Assembly: GCA_017480495.1 (NCBI GenBank)
Contig: JAFVAQ010000026.1
Location: forward strand, 1-64,000
DNA length: 64,000 nucleotides
From: Eubacterium sp.
GTDB taxonomy: Bacteria > Bacillota > Clostridia > Lachnospirales > Lachnospiraceae
Direction of reading: 5' to 3'
The notes under the pieces are model-generated. The model ran no database searches and had not been told where the DNA came from. It saw only the letters and a list, made by a program, of their open reading frames with translations. The translations under genes and the position numbers were made by a program. This document shows, one piece after another, positions 1 through 51,333 of the stretch; position 1 is the first letter of the stretch, and each line of letters starts with the position of its first letter.

Positions 1-126
1 AGAGATTTGCTTACAGCTTCCTTCAGATTCCACCTCACGATGGACACCCTTGCTGTTCAGCTATACACTTCCCACTATCTGGGCGTGTTCGGGACTTGCA
101 CCCGTTAGAGCGCGCCCATGGCGCGC
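1..126 (-). mobile_element. Probable group II intron, 5' part (domain I), runs off left edge
   Basis: Read on the minus strand, this stretch has the self-complementary GCGCGCC/GGGCGCGC segment, then GGGTGCAAGTCCCGAAC, then GTGAGGTGGAATCTGAAGG and AAGCTGTAAGCAAA. These blocks match my recollection of the domain I region of bacterial group II introns of Firmicutes that encode an LtrA-type reverse transcriptase. The maturase gene and the 3' domains V and VI would lie left of the window. It starts immediately downstream of the Rho-independent terminator of the VWA gene, a common landing position for bacterial group II introns. No coding capacity is visible here. The exact 5' splice site cannot be placed. 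Identification rests on pattern memory only. Confidence 0.55.
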
Positions 127-40464: not shown

Positions 40465-42555
40465 TTATACACGTGGACCAGCCTGAACATTAGGCTTGAT
40501 TCTTCCCTCCAGGACATCTATACGATGCTTTGTAGCCTCGTTTGATCTGCCCTCCAGAGATACTGTTTTTTCACTAAAGAGTCTATGATAAGCATTTGTA
40601 CGAACCTCATTTGTTCTATTAACAAGCTTATCAGCCAGTGCCTGTCCTATTTTACCCGTCTTGGCCAAAATAGCCAGAACATCAAGCGTCTCATTAAAAT
40701 GTTCCTGCTGCGTATCTGTCATACGCTCACTCTTACGACCCTTCATATACTTCTCTGTTTCCCTATACACCTTACCAAGTGTGTATCCCAGATTCAGAAC
40801 ATCAATATTGTCAGGATCCAGGTTATTTAGGGATTTCATGTAAGCATTGAATCTCTTATAGTCATTACTTGCGCCATTGGAGGTCGGCATTATCTGTCCA
40901 AGCTCCTTCAGCTTTCTCAGAGCCTCTCTCTGAAGATCAGGTCTCGAATCAAACATAAATGGTTCTTCCATTCTATTCAATACTTTGAAAGCTCTGTTTT
41001 TATCTGCTATATCCTTTATTTCATCACTATTCCAAACCACCTGGTCACCCTGTTTTTTAGTAAACATACCTCTAAACACAGGATTTTTAATTACATCCTT
41101 GGCAGCTTTATCTATAGAATCAGGTCGAAAGGCTGGCCTTTTCTCAGGATCTTCTATTGCCATCGCCTTCTGTTTCCACTGATATGCCGCTACCACTTTA
41201 GCCAAATGTTCAGCTCCAGACTGTCCCATACCGCTTGATACAGGAGCTGAATGAAGCGCTATATACTTTTCAAATGCATCGGCATTTTCCAGAGTTTTCG
41301 CCTGATTGGCCATTATCTTCTCAGTTTCATCAGCAAAAAGCTTGCATTGTTTTTTTAGTGGAGCTCCGATATAAGGATTATCCTGAACCTTATTTAGTAT
41401 CTGAGTTATAGTTTTTATATCATCATTAGCTCCATTATTATATGCTGAATAAAGCTTCATATAATCCTCATCTGTAGGATTCTTCTTTTCAGCCACTCTA
41501 TCGAGATTATCCATAAAAAATGTAACACGGTTCAGAATACCCTCGCCATATTCATTTGAAATAAATGACTTAATCTCCTCCTCATGCTCCAACATACCAG
41601 GATTATCATTTATCTGCTTTTGCAGATTAGTAAGTTCCTGCTTAAACTGCCTCATCTTTTGTATATATGGACCATTATTCTTAGCCTCCTGAACCATAGC
41701 TTTCATAGAATTAAGCGTTACAGCCTTTGAAAGCTCGTTCATTCTATTCGGCTCTATATTCACACCCTCTATTGGTTCATCTAATATTTCTCCGATCATG
41801 CCCTTCTTGAATCTTCCGGCCTGCGGCTGGGCATTTACAATATTAATCTGATTGTTAGGCGCAGCATTCTGATTATTTGCATTTCTTCTAACCGGTCTAG
41901 CATGGTTAGGAACCTTAACAGGAACAGGATCATCACTATCAAAGGATCTTCTTTGTGCTCCCGGATTATCAAAATACAACCTCTGTTCATATAAAGGCAG
42001 ATTATTGGTTTTATCGAACTCTTCCACCGCCACATTGTTGTTTTCATCGAACAGATATGAATTGATCATCTCCTTACCGCCGACGATCCTGCCATTATCT
42101 ATGAAAAATTTCTTTATACTATCAGGCTGAAAAAAACCAGTTGCACCCATATGATTGATCTTAGGATCTACAATGTATATCTTGTTGTCATACATTACCT
42201 GCATAAGCTCCTGAAGCTTTTTCATCAGCTTGGTTGCATCGATGATAATATCTCTCATTTTTTCAGGATCTGAGCTTCTATTTCTAATTGCCTTTACATT
42301 AATAAGGTGATCAAACTCTGCCGCTGCACTGACAGCCTGTTTGAGAAGCTCATACTCTGGGTCAGGCTGACCATTATTTCTCCTAAAATTTTCTTTATAT
42401 TTATCATCAGCTATCTTGTTTAATCTATTTTTAAAAGTCGACCAATAATTCCTAAGCTCATCTGCCAGGGGGTCCCCTTTTACCCAAAGCGTCATTTGAG
42501 CTACCATTTGAGATGTTGGATCATTTTTAAAATTTATCAGTTCCTGTCTTGGCAT
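40465..42555 (-). CDS. Large orphan soluble protein, mostly helical, unknown function
   Basis: 696 aa with a clear ribosome binding site (AAAGGAG, 8 nt before ATG). No signal peptide, TM segment or lipobox. It begins MPRQELINFKNDPTSQM; residues about 1-130 are helical, about 222-260 are an Asn/Gln/Ala/Pro-rich linker (RRNANNQNAAPNN), and the rest is long charged helices ending in RIKPNVQAGPRV. A single cysteine is seen. I cannot place it in any family. It is not coupled to the core operons around it, and its promoter shares a 15-bp element with that of the 747-aa orphan at 48976-51219. A structural, secreted effector-like or defence role would all be guesses. Confidence 0.85.
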   Translation of the reverse strand: MPRQELINFKNDPTSQMVAQMTLWVKGDPLADELRNYWSTFKNRLNKIADDKYKENFRRNNGQPDPEYELLKQAVSAAAEFDHLINVKAIRNRSSDPEKMRDIIIDATKLMKKLQELMQVMYDNKIYIVDPKINHMGATGFFQPDSIKKFFIDNGRIVGGKEMINSYLFDENNNVAVEEFDKTNNLPLYEQRLYFDNPGAQRRSFDSDDPVPVKVPNHARPVRRNANNQNAAPNNQINIVNAQPQAGRFKKGMIGEILDEPIEGVNIEPNRMNELSKAVTLNSMKAMVQEAKNNGPYIQKMRQFKQELTNLQKQINDNPGMLEHEEEIKSFISNEYGEGILNRVTFFMDNLDRVAEKKNPTDEDYMKLYSAYNNGANDDIKTITQILNKVQDNPYIGAPLKKQCKLFADETEKIMANQAKTLENADAFEKYIALHSAPVSSGMGQSGAEHLAKVVAAYQWKQKAMAIEDPEKRPAFRPDSIDKAAKDVIKNPVFRGMFTKKQGDQVVWNSDEIKDIADKNRAFKVLNRMEEPFMFDSRPDLQREALRKLKELGQIMPTSNGASNDYKRFNAYMKSLNNLDPDNIDVLNLGYTLGKVYRETEKYMKGRKSERMTDTQQEHFNETLDVLAILAKTGKIGQALADKLVNRTNEVRTNAYHRLFSEKTVSLEGRSNEATKHRIDVLEGRIKPNVQAGPRV

Positions 42556-42617: not shown

Positions 42618-42651
42618 ATTATAAACTCTAAATAGCAACAAGAGCGCAACA
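42618..42651 (-). promoter_or_regulatory. Unusual promoter of the 696-aa orphan (shared element A)
   Basis: On the minus strand TGTTGCGCTCTTGTT (42637-42651), 13-bp gap, TATAAT (42618-42623). No canonical -35 lies 16-18 bp upstream of the -10. The element is 14/15 identical to the one at 51292-51306, with the same gap to the -10. Confidence 0.65.
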
Positions 42652-42672
42652 CATAAAAAAATATTTATAATT

Positions 42673-42709
42673 AAAAACCCCCGACCAGACAATTAGTCCA
42701 GCCAGGGGT
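42673..42709 (-). terminator. Terminator of the amino acid ABC importer operon
   Basis: CCCCTGGCTGGAC pairs with GTCTGGTCGGGGG (one or two mismatches), then TTTTTAATT on the minus strand. Confidence 0.85.
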
Positions 42710-42759
42710 ATATATCCTGTTATTTTATAATATATTTAAGACCACATAATATCAAAGCC

Positions 42760-43569
42760 TTATTCAGCATCAGAGCCAGATGCATCCTCTTCTGTATCTA
42801 CATCCAGATACTTAGCTGATAGTTCTGAAACTGTTCCATCGTCAAGCATCTTCTGTACTGATGCATTTATCTGATTTAGAAGCTCTGTGTTACCCTTCTT
42901 AACTGCGATAGCATATTCCTCAGCTTCGAAAGCCTCTGGATCCTCAACTATCTTAAGACCTTCGTTATCACCAACGAACTTCTCAGCTGTAGCAGAATCG
43001 ATAACTACAACATCACACTTTCCGTTAACAAGCTCCATGATAGCCTCTGTACCCTTCTTGAATGCCTCATAGTTGTATCCCATTTCCTGAACACAAGTCT
43101 CACCTGTGTAACCCTGAATTACAACAATCTTCTTATCCTTCATATCTGAAGCCTTTTGGATATCAGAATCGCTTTTAACGATCATTACCTGTGTAGCTGT
43201 GTAATAAGGAGTAGAGAAATCATATGCCTGCTTTCTCTCATCTGTAACTGTCATACCAGCTATAACTGCATCAACCTGACCGTTATCAAGTGCAAGAAGA
43301 AGTGAATCAAACTCCATGTTGTTGATCTTAGCTTCCTTGCCCTGATCCTCAGCTATCTTCTGAGCGATTGCAATATCGATACCATCGAACTCTCCGATTG
43401 TACCCTTTGATGTAACATACTCAAATGGAGGGAACTCAGCATTTGTTCCAAAAACGATAACATTCTTGTCAGCTGAATCTGTCTCCTTTTCATCTGATCC
43501 ACAGCCTGCGAATCCAAGAACCATTGCTCCTGCCAGAAGCATTGCTAAAACCTTCTTAAACTTTTTCAT
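42760..43569 (-). CDS. Amino acid ABC transporter substrate-binding lipoprotein
   Basis: 269 aa from the ATG at 43569, which has AAAGGAG 7 nt upstream; the ATG six codons earlier overlaps that site. Signal peptide ending in lipobox GFAGC (Cys23). The body is a SBP_bac_3 protein: FGTNAEFPPFEYV, GEFDGIDIAIAQKIAEDQG, FDSLLLALDNGQVDAVIAGMTVTDERKQAYDFSTPYY. It captures a polar amino acid (glutamine, cystine, arginine or similar) outside the membrane. Last gene of the permease-ATPase-binding protein operon. Confidence 0.94.
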   Translation of the reverse strand: MKKFKKVLAMLLAGAMVLGFAGCGSDEKETDSADKNVIVFGTNAEFPPFEYVTSKGTIGEFDGIDIAIAQKIAEDQGKEAKINNMEFDSLLLALDNGQVDAVIAGMTVTDERKQAYDFSTPYYTATQVMIVKSDSDIQKASDMKDKKIVVIQGYTGETCVQEMGYNYEAFKKGTEAIMELVNGKCDVVVIDSATAEKFVGDNEGLKIVEDPEAFEAEEYAIAVKKGNTELLNQINASVQKMLDDGTVSELSAKYLDVDTEEDASGSDAE

Positions 43570-43637
43570 AATTTTTCTCCTTTTCATTAAGATAAATATC
43601 CTATAACTTTTTATATTAACGCAATCATCTCTGACGC

Positions 43638-44360
43638 TTATAGAACCTTACTGAGAAATTCTCTTGTTCGGTCATTCTGAGGATTTTCAAATATTTCTAC
43701 CGGCGAGCCCTTTTCCATAATGACGCCCTCATCCATAAACAGGATTCGGGTTCCGACCTCTCTCGCAAAGCCCATCTCATGGGTTACAACAACCATTGTC
43801 ATTCCACTTTTTGCCAGGTTCTTCATAACTTCTAGAACCTCACCAACCATTTCAGGATCTAGCGCCGAGGTTGGCTCATCAAACAGCATTATTTCCGGCT
43901 CCATCGCAAGGGCTCTTGCTATTGCTATTCTCTGCTGCTGTCCACCAGACAATGACTTAGGATAAACATCCGCTTTATCCTCAAGACCTACTATCTTCAG
44001 AAGCTCCATTGCTTTCGCATCTGCCTCTTCCTGAGTGAACTTCTTCAGCTTAACTGGCGCAAGCGTAATATTCTTCTTAACCGTCAGATGAGGGAACAGA
44101 TTGAAATGCTGAAATACCATTCCCATTCTCTCTCTGATTTTATTAACATTTACTCCGTGAGCAGTGATTTCATCATCGTCAATCCATATTCTTCCGGAGT
44201 TAGACTTTTCAAGTCTATTGAGACATCTAAGAAATGTACTCTTACCTGATCCAGATGGTCCGATTACAACCACAACCTCGCCGTCATTTATCTGCTCATC
44301 TATTCCCTTCAGGACTTCGAGTCCATTAAAGCTTTTATGAAGGTCTTCTATTCTAATCAT
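43638..44360 (-). CDS. Amino acid ABC transporter ATP-binding protein (GlnQ type)
   Basis: 240 aa. Walker [11 protein letters not shown]-loop [15 protein letters not shown], signature [15 protein letters not shown], Walker [15 protein letters not shown] and the switch histidine in [12 protein letters not shown]. The [10 protein letters not shown] stretch is typical of polar amino acid importers. It powers uptake with the neighbouring permease. Confidence 0.96.
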
Positions 44361-44372
44361 ATCCAGTCCCTC

Positions 44373-45071
44373 CTATCTGCTATCCGACTTACGAAGTCTC
44401 TTCTCAACCTTGCCAAGCGCAAGAGTTAAGAGTTTAATAAGTACAAAGTATATAATCGCTGTTGCAATAAGTGGCATGAACGCCTCATATGTAGCACTCT
44501 TAATGAAGTCACCAGCCTTCTGAATATCTACAAGACCAACGTAACCTACAATCGCTGTCTCTTTGATAAGAGTGATAAACTCATTACACATAGCTGGGAA
44601 GATATTCTTAACCGCCTGCGGAATAATGATACTCATCATTGTCTGCGCCTTGCTAAGTCCAAGCGATCTACCCGCTTCAGTCTGACCTTTATCTATAGAA
44701 AGAATACCCGCACGGATAATCTCCGATACATAAGCACCGGAATTAATAGAAAATGCTATCGCCGCGATAATCCATTTTGGCCAATCAACAGTCTTGAATA
44801 CAACGAAGTATATGATCATCAGCTGGGTAACTGAAGGTGTACCTCTGATTATATCGGTATAAACCTTTCCTATGACATTAAGCGCCTTCTTCTTCGAAAG
44901 GTTACATAGAGCGATAAGAAAACCTATCAAAAGCCCCATAATAGCCGCCAAAATGGACACCTTGATAGTAACCCCTATACCATTAAGGAGAAGCAAATAT
45001 CTATCATCTTTGATAAAACATTTCTCAAATGTTTCTGATAAGTTAGAAAAATAGGCACTTGCCAATAACAT
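44373..45071 (-). CDS. Amino acid ABC transporter permease
   Basis: 232 aa, five TM helices. The HisM/GlnP-type motifs include IIRGTPSVTQLMIIYF and the EAA loop (EAGRSLGLSKAQTMMSIIIPQAVKNIFPAM). First gene of the operon, with AGGAGG before ATG and a promoter at 45102-45130. It forms a homodimeric channel with the ATPase. The substrate is not fixed by sequence. Confidence 0.95.
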   Translation of the reverse strand: MLLASAYFSNLSETFEKCFIKDDRYLLLLNGIGVTIKVSILAAIMGLLIGFLIALCNLSKKKALNVIGKVYTDIIRGTPSVTQLMIIYFVVFKTVDWPKWIIAAIAFSINSGAYVSEIIRAGILSIDKGQTEAGRSLGLSKAQTMMSIIIPQAVKNIFPAMCNEFITLIKETAIVGYVGLVDIQKAGDFIKSATYEAFMPLIATAIIYFVLIKLLTLALGKVEKRLRKSDSR

Positions 45072-45101
45072 ATCGATTACCTCCTATGTAGTCAAAGGTA
45101 A

Positions 45102-45130
45102 ATGTTAACCTATATTTCACAATATTTCAA
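45102..45130 (-). promoter_or_regulatory. Promoter of the amino acid ABC importer operon
   Basis: TTGAAA, 17-bp spacer, TAACAT on the minus strand, divergent from the glycerate kinase promoter. Confidence 0.7.
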
Positions 45131-45140
45131 GACAAAAATG

Positions 45141-45168
45141 TTGAATTCACTTGTCTATCTGCTATAAT
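45141..45168 (+). promoter_or_regulatory. Promoter of the glycerate kinase gene
   Basis: TTGAAT, 16-bp spacer, TATAAT on the plus strand, about 57 bp before the gene; AAGGAG ribosome binding site follows. Confidence 0.75.
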
Positions 45169-45224
45169 TTTGTCATGTATCATATATGTAAATATCAAAA
45201 TAACTAACTAAGGAGTACTGAGAT

Positions 45225-46400
45225 ATGAAGGTTGTATTTGCTATTGATTCAATGAAGGGCTGTCTCTCCTCTATGGAATGCGGAAATGCCGCAGCCAAAG
45301 GACTTATGAGAGCCATTCCTGATGCAGAGTACGAAGTAAGGCCTCTAGCCGATGGCGGCGAAGGAACTGTTCAGGCAGTCACAGTAGGCTGTAATGGTTC
45401 TTTTGAGAAAATAGATGTGACCGGTCCACTAGGGCAGAAAGTAACCGCCACCTATGGAATAATTGAAAATCCTAATAAAACAGCTGTAATTGAAATATCC
45501 GCAGCTGCTGGAATCACACTTATATCTCCCGTTGATATGGATCCATTCAAGACTACCACTTACGGAGTCGGAGAAATAATAAAGGATGCTATTAATAAAG
45601 GCTGCAGGCATTTTATAGTCGGACTAGGCGGAAGCGCCACAAATGATGTAGGAATAGGAATGCTGCAGGCTCTTGGAATTAGGTTCTACGACAGTCAAAA
45701 GCAAGAACTAAAGGGAGATGAGGGATTTCTAACAGGCGGCGATCTCGAGTTTATCCATTTTATATCTACAAAACAAGTTCTACCAGAACTTTCAGAATGT
45801 AGTTTCAGGATAGCCTGCGATGTAAATAATCCTTTAATAGGTCCTACCGGAGCATCTCATATATTCGGTCCTCAAAAAGGACTCTTCGAATCAGAGATAG
45901 AAACTGCTGACGGATGGATGCAGAGATTTGCCACTATCTCTGAGAAGGAACTGGGCTACAGCGTAGATCCATTCTTTAATGGTGCCGGAGCCGCAGGTGG
46001 TTTGGGATTTGCATTTAAATACTACCTTGGCGGAGAACTCGAAGCAGGAAATCGAATAGTTATAGAAGAAACTAATCTTAAGAAATATATCAGTGAAGCT
46101 GACTTAGTTGTAACCGGCGAGGGAATGCTGGATAGACAAACAGCTATGGGCAAGGCCCCTCTGGGAATAGCTCATATAGCTAAGGTTTTTGACAAACCAG
46201 TTATAGCACTTGTAGGCTCTGTGTCAGCCAGCTTTGACGGAGATGTTCTTCCGGATGTGGAAGCGTACTTCCCAGTACTAAGACGTGCCGTTTCCCTTAA
46301 GGAGGCTATGGAGCCGGCTACTGCTAAGACAAATATTGCTGCAACCAGCGAACAGGTATTTAGACTGGTGAATAGTATTCTCAAGATAAATAATGATTAA
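45225..46400 (+). CDS. Glycerate kinase (GlxK/GarK family)
   Basis: 391 aa, full length. VVFAIDSMKGCLSSMECGNAAAKG start, RPLADGGEGTVQA, GLGGSATNDVGIGMLQALG, and NGAGAAGGLGFAFKYYLG plus VVTGEGMLDRQTAMGKAP are all hallmark blocks of this family. It phosphorylates D-glycerate, at position 2 in GarK-like enzymes, linking serine/glycerate catabolism to glycolysis. It is monocistronic and ends in a bidirectional terminator facing rplA. Confidence 0.95.
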   Translation: MKVVFAIDSMKGCLSSMECGNAAAKGLMRAIPDAEYEVRPLADGGEGTVQAVTVGCNGSFEKIDVTGPLGQKVTATYGIIENPNKTAVIEISAAAGITLISPVDMDPFKTTTYGVGEIIKDAINKGCRHFIVGLGGSATNDVGIGMLQALGIRFYDSQKQELKGDEGFLTGGDLEFIHFISTKQVLPELSECSFRIACDVNNPLIGPTGASHIFGPQKGLFESEIETADGWMQRFATISEKELGYSVDPFFNGAGAAGGLGFAFKYYLGGELEAGNRIVIEETNLKKYISEADLVVTGEGMLDRQTAMGKAPLGIAHIAKVFDKPVIALVGSVSASFDGDVLPDVEAYFPVLRRAVSLKEAMEPATAKTNIAATSEQVFRLVNSILKINND

Positions 46401-46430
46401 AAAAAGCCGAGGCATTTGCCTCGGCTTTAA
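46396..46430. terminator. Bidirectional terminator between glycerate kinase and rplA
   Basis: AAAGCCGAGGCA/TGCCTCGGCTTT, 12 bp with a 2-nt loop, followed by T7 on the minus strand (rplA side) and a short T run on the plus strand. Confidence 0.9.
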
Positions 46431-46447
46431 TATGCTTTAAGTAAGTA

Positions 46448-47152
46448 TTACTCTGTCTGTCCTGTAAACTTCTGTGGATTAAGCTTGATTCCAGGACCCA
46501 TTGTAGAAGTGATTGTAACACTCTTAAGGTACTGTCCCTTTGCGCTTGATGGCTTAGCCTTAACTACTGCATCCATAAGTGCCTTGTAGTTATCAGCGAT
46601 CTGTTCAGCTGTGAAAGAAGCCTTTCCAACTGGAACGTGGATGATGTTAGCCTTATCAAGTCTGTACTCGATCTTACCAGCCTTAACATCTTCAATAGCC
46701 TTAACAACATCAGGTGTAACTGTACCAGCCTTTGGATTTGGCATAAGTCCCTTAGGACCAAGTACACGTCCAAGACGTCCTACAACACCCATCATATCAG
46801 GTGTAGCAATAACTACATCGAAGTCAAGCCATCCATCATTCTGGATCTTTGGAACGAGCTCATCACCACCAGCGTAATCAGCGCCTGCCGCAAGAGCCTC
46901 ATCAACCTTGTCACCCTTAGCGAAAACAAGAACCTTAACAGTTTTACCTGTTCCGTGTGGCAGTACAACGGCTCCACGAACCTGCTGATCTGCATGACGT
47001 CCGTCAACACCCAACTTCAGGTGAGCTTCGATAGTTTCATCAAACTTAGAGTTTGCTGTCTTCTTGATTAATTCAGCTGCCTCTTCAAGATCATAGAGCT
47101 TGTTCTTCTCAACGAGCTTTGCAGCCTCTAAATATCTCTTACCTTTTTTCAT
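46448..47152 (-). CDS. rplA: 50S ribosomal protein L1
   Basis: 234 aa from the ATG at 47152 with GGAGGAG 6 nt upstream; the TTG five codons earlier lies within that site. [44 protein letters not shown] and [31 protein letters not shown] are characteristic. It forms the L1 stalk of 23S rRNA and commonly represses its own rplK-rplA mRNA. Last gene of the rpmG-secE-nusG-rplK-rplA cluster; rplJ and rplL are not next to it, since the convergent glycerate kinase follows. Confidence 0.98.
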
Positions 47153-47172
47153 CTTTATCTCCTCCAAACCTA

Positions 47173-47598
47173 TTAGTCAACTACTTCAATACCCATTGAA
47201 CGAGCTGTACCAGCTATCATGCTCATAGCTGCCTCAAGAGAACCAGCATTCAAATCTGGCATCTTTGTCTCTGCGATTTCCTGAACCTGAGCCTTGGTAA
47301 TCTTACCAACCTTCTTCTTGTTAGGCTCGCCAGATGCCTTCTGAAGACCTGCTGCCTTCTTGATGAGTACTGCTGCAGGTGGAGTCTTAGTAATAAAGCT
47401 GAAACTACTATCTGCATAAACTGTGATAACTACAGGGATTATCATATCACCCTTATCAGCTGTTCTATCGTTAAACTGCTTTGTGAAGTCTACGATATTT
47501 ACACCATGCTGACCAAGTGCTGGTCCAACAGGTGGTGCTGGAGTTGCCTTTCCTGCAGGTATCTGTAACTTAATGTAACCTTTGACTTTCTTAGCCAT
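47173..47598 (-). CDS. rplK: 50S ribosomal protein L11
   Basis: 141 aa, standard length. [55 protein letters not shown] and the C-terminal RNA-binding [11 protein letters not shown] are present. It forms the GTPase-associated centre of the ribosome and mediates the stringent response. GGAGGAAATGAAAA upstream gives the ribosome binding site. Confidence 0.98.
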
Positions 47599-47688
47599 TT
47601 TTCATTTCCTCCTCTCGTGGTAAATCGCGGGGTTATTCCCCTTCCACTTATATATAAATGCCCTTAGGTTAGCAGGACAAATATACGC

Positions 47689-48345
47689 TTAATTAAGCTT
47701 CTGAATCTCGCCCAGACTTATCTCAACATCTGTTGAACGTCCAAAGAGATCTATATCTATCGTAACTGACTGTTTTGTACGATTGATAGTCTTGATGTTT
47801 CCTTCTGTTCCTTCCCATGGACCAGCGATAACCTTGATAAGGTCACCGATCTCAACATCTATCTGGATGTCGTCAACTTTAACACCAAGTCTGATCATCT
47901 CAGCATCTGTTAATGGAACTGGCTCTGATCCAGGTCCAACAAATCCTGTAACACCACGTGTATTTCTTACAACATACCATGTTACATCGTTCTTGATCAT
48001 ATGTACGAGAACATATCCAGGGAACATTTTCTTAGAAACAGTTTTCTTAGCGCCCTTCTTAATCTCTGTAACATCCTGAACAGGTACCATTACTTCAAAC
48101 ATCTGATCCTCAAGTCTACGATTCTCGATGGTCTTCATGATATCCTTTCTGACCTTCTCCTCGTAACCCGAATAAGTATGAACTACATACCAATGTGGTT
48201 CATCATCTCCCTGTTGTTTGATGTTGGCAGACTTCTGACGCTTCTCTTCCTGAACAACCTCTTCAGTCTCTGCCACCTCAGCTGCACTTACAGCTTCTGT
48301 AGCTTCTGTTAATTCTTCAGTATCTATCTTTTTTTCTTCTGCCAT
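47689..48345 (-). CDS. nusG: Transcription termination/antitermination factor NusG
   Basis: 218 aa from the ATG at 48345 with GGCGGTGA upstream; an ATG six codons earlier overlaps secE. The NGN domain begins near residue 53 (HWYVVHTYSGYEEKV), followed by VRNTRGVTGFVGPG, and a KOW domain (IKVIAGPWEGTEGNI). The first 50 residues are a Glu/Ala/Thr-rich acidic extension not found in the E. coli protein. It couples RNA polymerase to ribosomes or pausing. Adjacent to secE as usual. Confidence 0.97.
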   Translation of the reverse strand: MAEEKKIDTEELTEATEAVSAAEVAETEEVVQEEKRQKSANIKQQGDDEPHWYVVHTYSGYEEKVRKDIMKTIENRRLEDQMFEVMVPVQDVTEIKKGAKKTVSKKMFPGYVLVHMIKNDVTWYVVRNTRGVTGFVGPGSEPVPLTDAEMIRLGVKVDDIQIDVEIGDLIKVIAGPWEGTEGNIKTINRTKQSVTIDIDLFGRSTDVEISLGEIQKLN

Positions 48346-48356
48346 GTTATCACCGC

Positions 48357-48560
48357 CTACCATAAATATTGAAGACCATAGTTAAGTAAATAGTCTACGA
48401 CTACGATGATACCGCCGATAAGAGCAGCAGATACCAATACTACTATTGTCTCTTTTACGAGCTGCTTTCCTGTAGGCCAAGTAATCTTCTTAAACTCAGC
48501 ACTAAGCTCCTGGAACCAGCTTCTCTTAAGAGCAGGTGATGTCTCTTTCTTCTCTGACAT
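48357..48560 (-). CDS. secE: Preprotein translocase subunit SecE
   Basis: 67 aa. Cytoplasmic amphipathic helix with WFQELSAEFKKITWPTGKQLVKET, the SecE signature, then one TM helix. It stabilises SecY in the inner membrane. Between rpmG and nusG, the conserved order. Confidence 0.97.
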   Translation of the reverse strand: MSEKKETSPALKRSWFQELSAEFKKITWPTGKQLVKETIVVLVSAALIGGIIVVVDYLLNYGLQYLW

Positions 48561-48593
48561 ATTATCTACCTCTCTGAATAAACAATCAGTAAA

Positions 48594-48743
48594 TTACTTA
48601 GTCTCCTTGTGCATTGTATGCTTCTTGCAGAACTTACAATACTTCTTTGTTTCCATTCTATCTGGATGAAGCTTCTTATCCTTAGTCATATTATAATTAC
48701 GCTGCTTGCACTCTTCACAAGCAAGAGTTATCTTGACACGCAT
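48594..48743 (-). CDS. rpmG: 50S ribosomal protein L33
   Basis: 49 aa from ATG at 48743 ([20 protein letters not shown]...) to TAA at 48594, with GGAGG 7 nt upstream. Two CxxC pairs (CEEC and CKFC) form the zinc ribbon of the zinc-binding C+ form of L33. The gene is too short for most length cut-offs. First gene of the secE-nusG-rplKA operon, with about 130 nt of leader from the promoter at 48875-48904. Confidence 0.97.
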
Positions 48744-48874
48744 GATGTCACCTCCATAGATTTTCGTAAATTAATGTTAAAAGTTCTATACGTAACTAGG
48801 GTATACTTCCGTGTGCCAGCTGGGATAACTGTAAAATGCACACTAAAAGAAGTGCGTATAGAAACGCAAGTGTT

Positions 48875-48904
48875 AGAATAACATAGTATATAGTTACAAG
48901 TCAA
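48875..48904 (-). promoter_or_regulatory. Promoter of the rpmG-secE-nusG-rplKA operon
   Basis: TTGACT, 18-bp spacer, TATTCT on the minus strand. The leader that follows (to 48744) contains GTTTCTATACG that can pair with CGTATAGAAC, suggesting a structured 5' region. Confidence 0.65.
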
Positions 48905-48922
48905 GGGATTTTTTGAGACAGA

Positions 48923-48952
48923 TTATGTGACAGAGCGAACTCTGTCACATAA
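48923..48952. terminator. Strong 13-bp hairpin after the 747-aa orphan gene
   Basis: TTATGTGACAGAG pairs with CTCTGTCACATAA around a 4-nt loop (TTCG on the minus strand). It is 24 bp beyond the stop of the minus-strand gene, but the T run (CTATTTTTC) is on the plus strand side; on the minus strand only A-tracts flank it. It may stop transcription both ways or protect the mRNA end. Confidence 0.55.
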
Positions 48953-48975
48953 CTATTTTTCTTATTATATTAGCA

Positions 48976-51219
48976 TTACTTACCCATACCTGATGGCATA
49001 GTTGGTTTTCTGACTGTGATTGCCTTTTCTTTGACATTTGGAGTTATCTTAGTTTTCTTTTCAGCCTGCTTAAGCGGATCCATTCCCATAGCAGTCTTGA
49101 TTCCTGTCATCATCAGTAGATTTACATCCTTGTAGTTTTTCTCTGTAATAAGAGGCAATCTATATTCTGAATCATTCATCTCAACCTTAGTCATACGCTT
49201 CTCAATGGCATCCTCAAGATTAATTGCATTGGCCACCTTCTCCACATTGGCAGGGGTACATTCAAAGCCAAAGATTTCCTTGAATTTACTTGCAGCATTA
49301 TCCTGCATTTTATGATATTCTTCCTTACCAATTCGATAGGCAAATGGTTTAGATGATGTAGAGAAGCTTGTCTTGGAATGTTTAACTACTCTTTCACCAA
49401 GCTCCTGTGCTCTGTATGGATCAAGAGCTCCAATGATACCATGTGCCAATGCGGCCTCTGCTTCTTCAGGTCTCTTACTCATGGTTTTACTACTTATCAT
49501 TTCCATCATCTTATAGGTTGCATCCTTACCCAGTGTACCTATTCCAGAATCTCCTCTAAGATTAATCTGAACATCTTCATTATTTAGAGTTTTATTAATG
49601 TAGTCAGCATTTAAAACTGGAGCCTTCTCTTTAGATGCATCCATCGCATTTATCTGTTTTAATAATTCAGTCGACGCACTGGTATAATTCTTCTTCAAAG
49701 AATCAAATCTTAGCTTAGCTTTATCTACATCTGTAACAGCTTTAAACATATTCTCCTGGCGAGCCTGCTTCTCTTCTGCCTCACGATTTGCTGCACTTAT
49801 TCTATCTTTAAACTGCCTAGCGTAATTCCTTAAACTCTTACTAGTTTTCTCCATTTCAGGTTTTGCAGTTTTTACGTGCTCATCAACAGCTTTTCTAGCA
49901 TCCTGAACCGCTTTTTTCTGTTCAGTTTCTTCCTTAGCACGTAGCTCAGCGCCTGATGGAACCTTCTCAACATCTACGTCTATTTTTGAATGCTGAGCCA
50001 TCTTCTCGTCTTCGATTTGTTTTGTAAGCTCATCAAGACTCTTCGTATAAGTCTTCTGATTTTCTCTAAGACTCATCAGCTCAGACTCCCATATCTGATG
50101 ATCCGATAACTTCTGATTACGATATTCTTCCTTAATCTTATAATTTCGAGAATGTCCTCCACCTAGAGACACCCATATTCTACGGAAGAAATTAGTTTCA
50201 ACTGGAGGATCTGGAACTACTGGTTCTCTATCCTCTTTTCTTGTGATTTCATCTTGATTCTTGGTTATTTTATCTCTTCGTTCCTCGAACTCGCCAGCAT
50301 ATGTTTTATCTAGATTCTTCTCCCATTTCTTGTATTCATCCTCAAGCCTCGCTCGTTCAGTATTCTTATATTCTTCTCTTATCTCATCATCTGTTTTTGA
50401 GGCTATATTATTCTTCCATGACTCATATGCTTCTTCTTTTGATTTCACCTCATCCTCAAGAGTCTTTAATTTTTCATTATACTCTCTCTCCCATCGATCT
50501 GCGGATGCGAGGCATGAAAGCATCTCCTGGTTCCACTTTAATATTTTTTCTTCGTTCTTCAGTAATTCTCTATCTAAAGAATTAATAGTTGACTGCGGAC
50601 TATGTAAATCGTTCTCTGTGTTAACGAAATTAGAACCTACAACAGCAATAGGTGTTTTATTAGGGATAGTAATAAAGACTCTTGGAGGCTGATCAGCTCT
50701 CGACACACCAGGTGTTATCTTATTGCCCAGAAATGCCGTTTTATAAGACTCGAGCTCATCCATACTCTTCATAGATAAGAAGGCACCCATATGAACAGCG
50801 AGCAGGCTTCCGAAACTCTTTCCTGTCTTCTCACTATCAAGCAAAAAATCTATTGTACTATTATCAAAATACTTCTCCGCATAAGAAACTACTTTGCCAT
50901 CAGATTCAACAATCTTAATATTGTTGGCAATATCCATCATTGTTTTAACAGATGGTCGTACAGATGAATCAAGACCTATAGCATCCAGAAACGGTTTAGC
51001 CATTATATCTATAAATGCTTTATTGCCATCCTTATTCGAATAGAGACTACTGACTTCCCTAATCGCATTCTTATTACCTCGAACATTGCCATGAAAACTA
51101 AGCATTACATTATTTAATGAATCTAATGCTTTATTGTACTCCCAGCTGTTTGTATTAAACCCAGATATTGGTGACTCAAAACATGCAAAATTAATCTGTT
51201 CTTTTTTCTTAGGTGACAT
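48976..51219 (-). CDS. Large orphan coiled-coil protein, unknown function
   Basis: 747 aa from the ATG at 51219, which has GGAGGGG 5 nt upstream; a TTG seven codons earlier is in the same frame. It begins MSPKKKEQINFACFESP. No signal peptide or TM helix. Residues about 225-330 and 370-520 are long charged coiled coils (Glu/Lys-rich), separated by a proline and aromatic patch (EPVVPDPPVETNFFRRIWVS). The C-terminal 200 residues are globular and end in a basic tail, VRKPTMPSGMGK. No family recognised. Like the 696-aa orphan it stands alone between core operons and has the same unusual promoter element. Confidence 0.85.
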   Translation of the reverse strand: MSPKKKEQINFACFESPISGFNTNSWEYNKALDSLNNVMLSFHGNVRGNKNAIREVSSLYSNKDGNKAFIDIMAKPFLDAIGLDSSVRPSVKTMMDIANNIKIVESDGKVVSYAEKYFDNSTIDFLLDSEKTGKSFGSLLAVHMGAFLSMKSMDELESYKTAFLGNKITPGVSRADQPPRVFITIPNKTPIAVVGSNFVNTENDLHSPQSTINSLDRELLKNEEKILKWNQEMLSCLASADRWEREYNEKLKTLEDEVKSKEEAYESWKNNIASKTDDEIREEYKNTERARLEDEYKKWEKNLDKTYAGEFEERRDKITKNQDEITRKEDREPVVPDPPVETNFFRRIWVSLGGGHSRNYKIKEEYRNQKLSDHQIWESELMSLRENQKTYTKSLDELTKQIEDEKMAQHSKIDVDVEKVPSGAELRAKEETEQKKAVQDARKAVDEHVKTAKPEMEKTSKSLRNYARQFKDRISAANREAEEKQARQENMFKAVTDVDKAKLRFDSLKKNYTSASTELLKQINAMDASKEKAPVLNADYINKTLNNEDVQINLRGDSGIGTLGKDATYKMMEMISSKTMSKRPEEAEAALAHGIIGALDPYRAQELGERVVKHSKTSFSTSSKPFAYRIGKEEYHKMQDNAASKFKEIFGFECTPANVEKVANAINLEDAIEKRMTKVEMNDSEYRLPLITEKNYKDVNLLMMTGIKTAMGMDPLKQAEKKTKITPNVKEKAITVRKPTMPSGMGK

Positions 51220-51272
51220 ATCTACCCCTCCAATCTTCAATCATGCTACTGTTATATTAAAATTCCATTCTC

Positions 51273-51306
51273 ATCATACTATGTATATAATAACAAAAGC
51301 GCAACA
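51273..51306 (-). promoter_or_regulatory. Unusual promoter of the 747-aa orphan (shared element B)
   Basis: On the minus strand TGTTGCGCTTTTGTT (51292-51306), 13-bp gap, TATGAT (51273-51278). Same arrangement as the promoter at 42618-42651. Confidence 0.65.
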
Positions 51307-51333
51307 AAACGAAGCTACTTTTGCACTTATCTT

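What the first reader, a model, noticed from the sequence alone, without database searches (positions are those of the whole stretch)
42618..51306. Two orphan giant genes share an unusual promoter: 15-bp TGTTGCGCTYTTGTT element, 13 bp, then TATRAT
Upstream of the 696-aa gene (42618-42651) and the 747-aa gene (51273-51306) the minus strand carries TGTTGCGCTCTTGTT and TGTTGCGCTTTTGTT (14 of 15 identical), each exactly 13 bp before TATAAT or TATGAT. A normal -35 is absent. The rest of the two upstream regions is not similar, so this is not a simple duplication. I did not notice the element elsewhere in the window. The likely reading is a shared activator or an alternative sigma factor that switches on a small regulon of undescribed proteins.
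Basis: partly seen in the sequence, partly recalled or inferred. Interest (0 to 1): 0.8.

Follow-up and report, generated by a model that had tools for sequence, protein, structure and literature searches.

The report
Switch for a bacterial injection regulon
The repeated promoter sequence is real and marks dozens of genes in rumen bacteria, apparently a type IV secretion machine and its large cargo proteins switched on together by a nearby response regulator, which would make an open question about Gram-positive bacteria testable.

Summary
Both sites are there. In 61 genomes of the genus the 15-mer (at most 1 mismatch) occurs 584 times against 9 for the reversed control. Aligned sites show two 11-bp direct repeats, 8 bp, then a TATAAT-like -10: the geometry published for SARP activators (PMC10936776, passages), not an alternative sigma promoter. 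Genomes with the SARP-like response regulator RR267 have a median of 17.5 sites, the others 1. RR267 lies beside a chromosomal type IV secretion (T4SS) cluster whose pilin gene has the element. Many other targets are scattered giant orphan genes, including both window genes. These proteins share N-terminal starts, basic C-terminal tails and, in 17, a module; a few carry Fic, kinase-like, calpain or ADP-ribosylglycohydrolase domains. Best reading: a T4SS effector regulon in Gram-positive commensals. Regulation is well supported by sequence; secretion is inferred. Against it: G012 and G013 carry elements and giant genes with no apparatus or regulator found, and no experiment was possible.

The parts
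42632..42653 (-).
   Evidence: Exact match; box limits from the profile of 84 sites; element before 7 of 7 full-length homologues, own included
42618..42623 (-). -10 hexamer TATAAT
   Evidence: a hexamer with at least 4 of 6 matches lies at this spacing in 70 of 84 profiled sites
40465..42555 (-). 696-aa candidate T4SS effector gene (starts MPRQ, tail ends QAGPRV)
   Evidence: ORF; homologues over most of the length in 7 of 61 genomes, own included, element before all 7
40597..41289 (-). Residues 423-653 of the 696-aa protein: module found in 16 other proteins of the set, no known family
   Evidence: Iterated HMM search (one of its 18 strong rows is a duplicate), alignment A3 of 17, no convincing Pfam or PDB match
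51287..51308 (-). 22-bp operator (RR267 box) of the 747-aa gene; contains the 15-mer 51292-51306
   Evidence: Exact match; profile; element also before the G040 homologue
51273..51278 (-). -10 hexamer TATGAT
48976..51219 (-). 747-aa candidate T4SS effector gene (starts MSPKKK, tail ends RKPTMPSGMGK)
   Evidence: ORF; one homologue at E up to 1e-6 among 60 other genus genomes (G040, 64%); no Pfam or NCBIfam family at the curated cut-off

Best explanation
The element is the binding site of a SARP-like two-component response regulator (RR267, own genome C31:86098-86898), encoded beside a chromosomal type IV secretion cluster. Two monomers bind two 11-bp direct repeats that replace the -35 and recruit sigma-A RNA polymerase to a TATAAT-like -10 eight bp further on. 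The regulator switches on the secretion pilin and the cluster behind it, accessory secreted proteins, and a set of giant proteins scattered over the genome, among them the window's 696-aa and 747-aa proteins. These are most likely substrates (effectors) carried out by the machine, recognised by a short basic C-terminal tail and in some by a shared C-terminal module. Shown by sequence: operator, regulon, co-occurrence, target types, tail bias. Inferred: that RR267 is the binder, that the machine exports the giant proteins, and that targets are other cells, perhaps rumen eukaryotes.
For: Element 584 vs 9 reversed control in 61 genomes; RR267 orthologue present (30 genomes) median 17.5 sites, absent (31) median 1, U-test p 2e-10, not corrected for kinship. 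Operator geometry as published for SARPs. A profile of the RR DNA-binding half matches 6 PDB sequences at E up to 1, of which 3 are AfsR (first, E 0.031) and one EmbR; all weak. In five loci of other Clostridia found by the pattern alone, the element lies next to an RR267-like gene, 36-44% identity. In 4 of 10 other genera with a 61-79% coupling protein the same layout appears with half-sites TGTTGGA or TGTTGTA (2-13 sites); two of the four supplied the pattern; 1 of 15 genomes without that coupling protein has one site. The element precedes the own pilin (T4SS_pilin and NF045849 over cut-off) and all 7 full-length 696-aa homologues. Tail charge +3.65 (78) vs +0.06 (232); MP start 31/78 vs 9/232; [MVL]K[ED] start 25/78 vs 12/232. 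Domains over cut-off: Fic with full motif, kinase-like (2 proteins), calpain, ADP_ribosyl_GH. No PF03432 relaxase on the contig of the cluster (in single-contig G006 more than 370 kb away), and none at all in G005, G015, G028, G040. G004 kept RR267 and pilin but has no coupling-protein or VirB4 match, and none of its 6 elements precedes an ORF of 450 aa or more, the largest being 448 aa with a membrane-like start.
Against: No binding, transcription or secretion data. Seven genomes without an RR267 orthologue have 3 or more elements: G009 10, G025 9, G012 6, G013 5, G023 4, G018 3, G060 3. G012 and G013 (84% and 97% complete) carry elements before giant ORFs, yet no RR267 orthologue, VirB4 or specific coupling protein was found in them. 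Some T4SS genomes have few elements (G035 and G046 3 each, G034 5, G033 6). 23 of 82 sites are not within 300 bp before a same-strand gene, 7 of them inside genes. No BTAD domain was found in RR267 or its kin. 6 of 13 coupling-protein genomes have no site of the TGTTGGA/TGTTGTA pattern. Most candidate effectors match no family; 3 of 5 kinase-like matches lie under the cut-off. The R/D difference in the helix has exceptions. Genomes are related, so counts are not independent.
Confidence: 0.74

Rival explanations
1. The secretion cluster is a conjugative element and the giant proteins are its cargo or helper proteins, such as polyvalent proteins sent along with DNA; no dedicated protein delivery.
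For: The four core proteins match families named after conjugation or ICEs (NF045973, NF045848 and NF045849 over cut-off, NF045975 below it). Giant multidomain proteins of phages and conjugative elements are in print (PMC5512222, start of abstract seen in the listing only).
Against: No PF03432 relaxase on the contig of the cluster and none in 4 of 11 genomes scanned; in the single-contig genome G006 the relaxases lie at 0.51, 0.62 and 2.27 Mb, the cluster at 0.99-1.01 Mb. The own cluster sits beside ORFs that read like housekeeping genes (by eye). The giant genes are scattered over many contigs.
Confidence: 0.1
2. The giant proteins are intracellular or envelope proteins that only share timing with the secretion cluster; they are not its substrates.
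For: No export was tested; most match no family; the regulon also contains a STAS protein, lipoprotein-like and signal-peptide-like proteins.
Against: Basic, aromatic-poor C-terminal tail bias against 232 control ORFs, effector-type catalytic domains, and the G004 case in which apparatus and giant targets are both missing.
Confidence: 0.12
3. Effector regulon as proposed, but aimed at competing bacteria rather than at eukaryotic cells.
For: A T4SS that kills bacteria is known (Souza et al. 2015, cited in PMC12857230, passage); the rumen is dense with bacteria; Fic and ADP-ribosylglycohydrolase domains also act in bacteria (recalled).
Against: Little sign of immunity genes: of 44 candidate effectors with at least 400 nt of downstream DNA, 7 have a same-strand ORF within 60 bp and 4 of those are 250 aa or less. 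Calpain, PI3/PI4-kinase-like and Fam20C-like matches are of eukaryotic type.
Confidence: 0.2
4. The element is the promoter of an alternative sigma factor.
For: A partner-switching set (STAS, HATPase_c_2, SpoIIE phosphatase) lies in the same cluster, and such sets often control sigma factors (recalled).
Against: The -10 is TATAAT-like; the upstream part is an 11-bp direct repeat whose half-site varies between genera, with a different type of response regulator in the one locus where both were seen; no sigma gene was seen among the ORFs of C31:45-105 kb (by eye).
Confidence: 0.04
5. Chance, duplication or a mobile repeat.
For: A few sites lie inside genes (7 of 82); 0-5 sites in the other genera of the family scan.
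Against: 584 vs 9; position bias; little information outside the repeats and -10 in the profile, so no longer repeat travels with it.
Confidence: 0.01

Closest known systems
SARP activators of Streptomyces (AfsR and kin)
   Same: Direct repeats one helical turn (11 bp) apart, 3' repeat 8 bp from the -10, box over a poor -35 (PMC10936776 passages; own profile); AfsR is the best PDB match of the RR DNA-binding profile, at a weak E of 0.031.
   Different: RR267 and RR272 carry a receiver domain in front and only a short tail after the winged helix; no BTAD match. Different bacteria, half-site and targets.
Streptococcus suis 89K T4SS with SspA-1
   Same: A Gram-positive T4SS reported to secrete a protein (PMC12857230 section 22).
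   Different: There a pathogenicity island and one secreted protease; here a chromosomal cluster in commensals with a regulon of up to 35 sites per genome and many giant candidate substrates.
Clostridial CD1115-type and mycoplasma ICE T4SSs
   Same: Coupling protein NF045973, VirB6-like NF045848 and pilin NF045849 over cut-off; VirB4 nearest NF045975, below cut-off.
   Different: No PF03432 relaxase on the contig of the cluster; accompanied by giant orphan genes, partner-switching genes and a SARP-like two-component system.
Effector regulons of Gram-negative T4SSs run by response regulators (for example PmrA and Dot/Icm; recalled, no call)
   Same: Logic: one response regulator, one machine, scattered effector genes.
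   Different: Homology of the parts was not tested; monoderm envelope, different regulator family.

Membership tests
SARP regulators | Operator of direct repeats 11 bp apart, 3' repeat 8 bp from -10 | tested here: met
   Profile of 84 sites, repeats at -2..8 and 9..19, -10 at 28-33; rule read as a passage in PMC10936776
SARP regulators | OmpR-type winged-helix DNA-binding domain | tested here: inconclusive
   Trans_reg_C in 5 of 12 C-terminal halves at E up to 0.1, best 4.9e-6; own two RRs 19.6 and 24.8 bits, cut-off 26.2; best PDB match AfsR at E 0.031
SARP regulators | BTAD domain after the winged helix | tested here: not met
   No BTAD match for the two own RRs or among the families listed for 12 C-terminal halves; hence SARP-like, not filed as SARP
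Type IV secretion system | VirD4/T4CP ATPase | tested here: met
   674 aa, T4SS-DNA_transf E 3e-54, NF045973 over cut-off
Type IV secretion system | VirB4 ATPase | tested here: met
   1383 aa, P-loop_TraG over cut-off; NF045975 539 bits, cut-off 590
Type IV secretion system | VirB6-like membrane protein and VirB2-like pilin | tested here: met
   NF045848, NF045849 and T4SS_pilin over cut-off
Type IV secretion system | VirB8-like protein and VirB1-like cell wall hydrolase | tested here: inconclusive
   Cell wall hydrolase PF07486 just upstream of RR267; no VirB8-like match among the cluster proteins scanned, VirB8 profiles were not searched on their own
Conjugative element (ICE) | Relaxase with the T4SS | tested here: not met
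   PF03432 only: none on the contig of the cluster, or over 370 kb away (G006), and none in 4 of 11 genomes; other relaxase families not tested
T4SS effector translocator | Substrate proteins leave the cell through the T4SS | not testable with these tools
   Needs culture
T4SS effector translocator | Candidate substrates share a C-terminal signal | tested here: inconclusive
   Net charge of last 25 aa +3.65 (78) vs +0.06 (232), p 2e-17, at least +4 in 64% vs 16%; aromatic residues depleted; whether the tail is a signal was not tested

The most novel reading that the evidence does not exclude
A widespread, relaxase-free, chromosomal type IV secretion family in gut and rumen Lachnospirales commensals is a dedicated protein injector, with dozens of giant effectors per genome (Fic, kinase-like, calpain, ADP-ribosylglycohydrolase and many unknown folds) aimed at eukaryotic cells such as rumen ciliates, fungi or the animal host. 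It is controlled by a two-step cascade of SARP-like response regulators (RR272 on TGTTGGA, then RR267 on TGTTGCG).
Probability: 0.45. Interest if true: 0.93.

Novelty: new variant of a known kind. Interest (0 to 1): 0.86.

Why it matters
[quoted passage not shown] suis 89K (PMC12857230, section 22 read). This regulon gives a concrete test in cultured commensals: a machine, a regulator, an operator that lists the candidate substrates by sequence alone, and a shared tail. It also gives a search pattern for many giant proteins that match no family.

Tried and rejected
Alternative sigma factor, chance and mobile repeat were considered and rejected (see rivals). Autoregulation of the regulator in other Clostridia was my first reading of five loci (L156, L168, L175, L184, L193); one search showed the element lies after the RR267-like gene and before the next gene, so it was dropped. 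A regulator cascade (TGTTGGA before the RR267 gene run) is seen in 10 of 26 parsed loci; 4 of the 30 loci were not parsed, and a TGTTGGA hit was seen in one of those, L118, and before the RR267-like gene of G062 (L385); 16 of 26 had none in the DNA held, so it stays a hypothesis. The shared module gave no convincing Pfam or PDB match (best PDB E 0.0017 over 61 positions). The random control counted internal starts and was replaced. Papers: ten searches, eight on T4SS or secretion and two on SARP (63, 69), listed nothing that I recognised by title or abstract start as a T4SS effector system in Lachnospiraceae; several lists were capped, the library is open-licence PMC only, no preprints. Read in part: PMC10936776 and PMC5930380 (passages), PMC12857230 (outline, passages, section 22).

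Limits: the controls are ORFs from the same loci and may include operon neighbours of regulon genes; the 84 ORFs behind the 78 include a few from genera outside the own one; start codons and gene calls are my own greedy ORF calls; signal peptides were judged by a hydrophobic-run rule; 61 genomes are not phylogenetically independent; structure prediction gave no result. For the 82-site set the sites of G002, G004, G005 and G006, 1 of the 13 sites of G003 and the one G017 site in the fetched stretch were used. For G012, 5 of 6 sites were looked at, for G013 5 of 5, for G025 1 of 9.
Full report
Observation. They lie before a 696-aa gene and a 747-aa gene.

It is a genome-wide element. The own genome (1.89 Mb draft, 65.6% complete) has 24 places with at most 2 mismatches, the reversed control 1. 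In 61 genomes of the genus, at most 1 mismatch gives 584 places against 9 for the control; 48 of 61 genomes have at least one and the top three have 35. Among 299 family genomes, one per genus but for one, only the own genome (14), its genus mate G015 (34) and G062 of another genus (23) exceed 5; the rest have 0-5. A scan of genome contigs for the element plus -10 gave 115 stretches; 95 of the 115 record titles name Lachnospiraceae or Eubacterium, many of them rumen isolates or MAGs (counted by eye). Of 94 sites there with at least 1.4 kb downstream, 58 precede an ORF of at least 400 aa, 28 one of 80-399 aa, 8 none.

Anatomy. Aligning 84 sites (82 from the fetched loci of G002-G006 and G017, 2 from the window) without any condition on the -10 shows two 11-bp units, TTTGTTGCGCT and TTTGTTRYGCT-like, then 8 bp, then TA...T at positions 28-33. 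A hexamer with at least 4 of 6 matches to TATAAT lies at spacing 13 in 70 of 84; with at least 5 of 6 there are 69 of 84 at any tested spacing (65 at 12-14) against 22.4 (4.6) expected from shuffles. The flanks carry little information, so this is not a longer repeat. The published SARP rule is direct repeats 11 bp apart with the 3' repeat 8 bp from the -10, the box overlapping a poor -35 (PMC10936776, passages; heptamers with 4-bp spacers in PMC5930380, passages). The geometry agrees.

Position. 59 of the 82 sites lie within 300 bp upstream of a same-strand gene and 41 of 82 before a gene of at least 450 aa; random positions in the same loci give 6.1% and 2.9%. Seven sites fall inside genes and five face a convergent gene. 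Only 1 of the 13 G003 sites and 1 G017 site are in this set.

Targets in the own genome: a T4SS pilin at the head of a cluster with coupling protein, VirB6-like and VirB4 genes; a 1852-aa and a 670-aa protein with signal-peptide-like starts; 605-aa and 349-aa proteins; and, scattered over other contigs, proteins of 714, 566, 744, 1007, 1679, 1129, 696 and 747 aa, a STAS protein and a lipoprotein-like protein. The T4SS calls rest on Pfam and NCBIfam: coupling protein, VirB6-like protein and pilin are over curated cut-offs; VirB4 is over the Pfam cut-off for P-loop_TraG but below the nearest NCBIfam cut-off.

The regulator. Upstream of the pilin lie a gene that reads like a histidine kinase, a 231-aa membrane-like gene and RR267, a response regulator (receiver E 4e-19) with a weak Trans_reg_C match; a second one, RR272, lies 1.3 kb further upstream behind a cell wall hydrolase gene (kinase by eye). 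RR267 orthologues (429 bits or more) occur in 30 of 61 genomes; these have a median of 17.5 elements (3-35), the other 31 a median of 1 (0-10), p 2e-10; 28 of 61 have the specific VirB4 (one, G011, by a fragment), all of them with RR267. The two with RR267 but no VirB4 are telling: G017 has the pilin and an 84% coupling protein about 1 kb before its contig ends; G004, a single-contig genome, keeps RR267 and pilin, but no coupling protein or VirB4 was found, and none of its 6 elements precedes an ORF of at least 450 aa, though one precedes an ORF of 448 aa with a membrane-like start. Against this, seven genomes without RR267 have 3-10 elements (G009, G012, G013, G018, G023, G025, G060). Of these G012 and G013 carry elements before giant ORFs without any detectable RR267, VirB4 or specific coupling protein.

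Links between regulator type and half-site. (1) In five loci of other Clostridia (one titled Lachnospiraceae) found only by the DNA pattern, an RR267-like gene (36-44% identity, about as close to RR272) lies directly next to the element; in L207 the element heads a gene run that contains one. (2) Of ten other Lachnospiraceae genera with the same coupling protein (61-79% identity), four show the same layout with TGTTGGA or TGTTGTA half-sites, 2-13 sites each; two of the four (G304, G174) supplied the pattern, two (G135, G274) are fresh; six have none; 1 of 15 genomes without that coupling protein has one site. Several of these sites precede proteins starting MP or a pilin. (3) The G304 pilin has a TGTTGGA site and the RR beside it is of RR272 type. 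At one place in the putative recognition helix the RR272-type proteins have D where most RR267-type and the five TGTTGCG-linked regulators have R; exceptions are H in G033 and Q in L232 and L373 (the helix assignment is mine). (4) A TGTTGGA box lies within 1.5 kb upstream of RR267 in 10 of 26 parsed loci. This suggests a cascade, not proven. A profile of the DNA-binding halves matches six PDB sequences at E up to 1: AfsR three times, EmbR, and two others, all weak. No BTAD match, so I call it SARP-like.

The giant proteins. From all sites with at most 1 mismatch in fetched loci, 84 complete ORFs of at least 300 aa without a signal-like start reduce to 78 at 70% identity. Against 232 other ORFs of at least 300 aa from the same loci: start MP 31/78 vs 9/232; start [MVL]K[ED] 25/78 vs 12/232; mean net charge of the last 25 residues +3.65 vs +0.06 (p 2e-17); Y, W, C, F depleted in the last 12; median length 809 vs 430. 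They are mosaics (20 homology groups, 11 single). The C-terminal part of the window's 696-aa protein (residues 423-653) occurs in 16 other distinct proteins of the set at strong scores, two of them its full-length homologues; in 16 of the 17 it ends 38-70 residues before the C-terminus, ahead of the tail (one search lists one protein twice). It has no convincing known family. Of 46 candidate effectors scanned, 5 match PI3_PI4_kinase (2 over the cut-off, 3 under), 2 Fam20C (1 over), and one each ADP_ribosyl_GH, Peptidase_C2, Fic, Nif11 and three DUFs; most match nothing. The own 566-aa Fic protein has the motif HSFGDGNGRSCR, the own 744-aa protein a DRHxxN and a DND motif, the G002 calpain-like protein keeps a cysteine motif (catalytic roles recalled).

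The promoter is conserved with the gene. All 7 full-length 696-aa homologues (own included, down to 32% identity) and both 747-aa homologues have the element with at most 2 mismatches and spacing 12-13. Of 19 further loci that match only the shared segment, 9 show a site upstream of the matching protein in the DNA held; several others are cut before the start codon, but L338 and L345 hold short proteins without one.

Mechanism. Most likely RR267, once phosphorylated, binds both repeats, replaces the -35 contact and switches on the secretion machine together with its substrates. The cell wall hydrolase encoded next to RR267 would open the wall. The coupling protein would take the giant proteins by their basic tails. 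Binding, export and targets are inference. Protein delivery is preferred to conjugation because no PF03432 relaxase accompanies the cluster, because of the domain types, and because the giant genes are scattered. Eukaryotic targets are preferred only slightly: few adjacent small genes that could be immunity genes (4 of 44) and eukaryote-type domains.

Reach. Close homologues of the coupling protein (E at most 1e-150) are in 24 of 392 genomes of the order, in four families.

Novelty. A T4SS with effectors is a known kind; a Gram-positive, commensal, chromosomal one with a large operator-marked candidate substrate set would be a new variant and bears on a question that a 2025 review calls long-standing (PMC12857230, section 22). 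The paper searches listed nothing that I recognised as this system; preprints and most subscription papers were out of reach.

Noticed in passing
Own genome C31:65055-67175 and 73792-74091 (L026): Partner-switching set (SpoIIE phosphatase, HATPase_c_2, STAS) inside the T4SS cluster with no sigma-factor gene seen nearby; kin genes recur beside the coupling protein in several other genera. It may control the machine itself.
   Followed up: partly
L157, L197 (Ruminococcus MAGs): The same element lies before short proteins (107 and 98 aa) that read like Nif11-type peptide precursors, so the operator type may also control peptide genes elsewhere.
   Followed up: no
L156, L168, L175, L184, L193 (other Clostridia): Element between an RR267-like gene and a second receiver-like gene of 330-409 aa, followed in three loci by a 194-251-aa gene and a gene of about 1290-1430 aa (two cut by the locus end); a possible related system.
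   Followed up: partly
Own genome C31:88144-88160 (-) and C12:91842-91858 (+): Second operator type TGTTGGA-N4-TGTTGGA, the first before the cell wall hydrolase gene next to RR267, the second before a lipoprotein-like gene.
   Followed up: partly
Own genome C31:68123-73678 and L309:8797-14646: Giant protein (1852 and 1950 aa) with a signal-like start, PLAT match in the own copy, element in front, kin beside the T4SS in other genera; perhaps a surface part of the machine.
   Followed up: no
window 40465-42555: Residues 310-375 of the 696-aa protein match DUF3829_2nd just under the cut-off (E 6e-6).
   Followed up: no
G004:C1:1430449-1436331 (L277:5450-11332): In the genome that lacks the coupling protein, a 1961-aa ORF with a signal-like start sits behind the pilin, where the coupling protein would be expected.
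   Followed up: no
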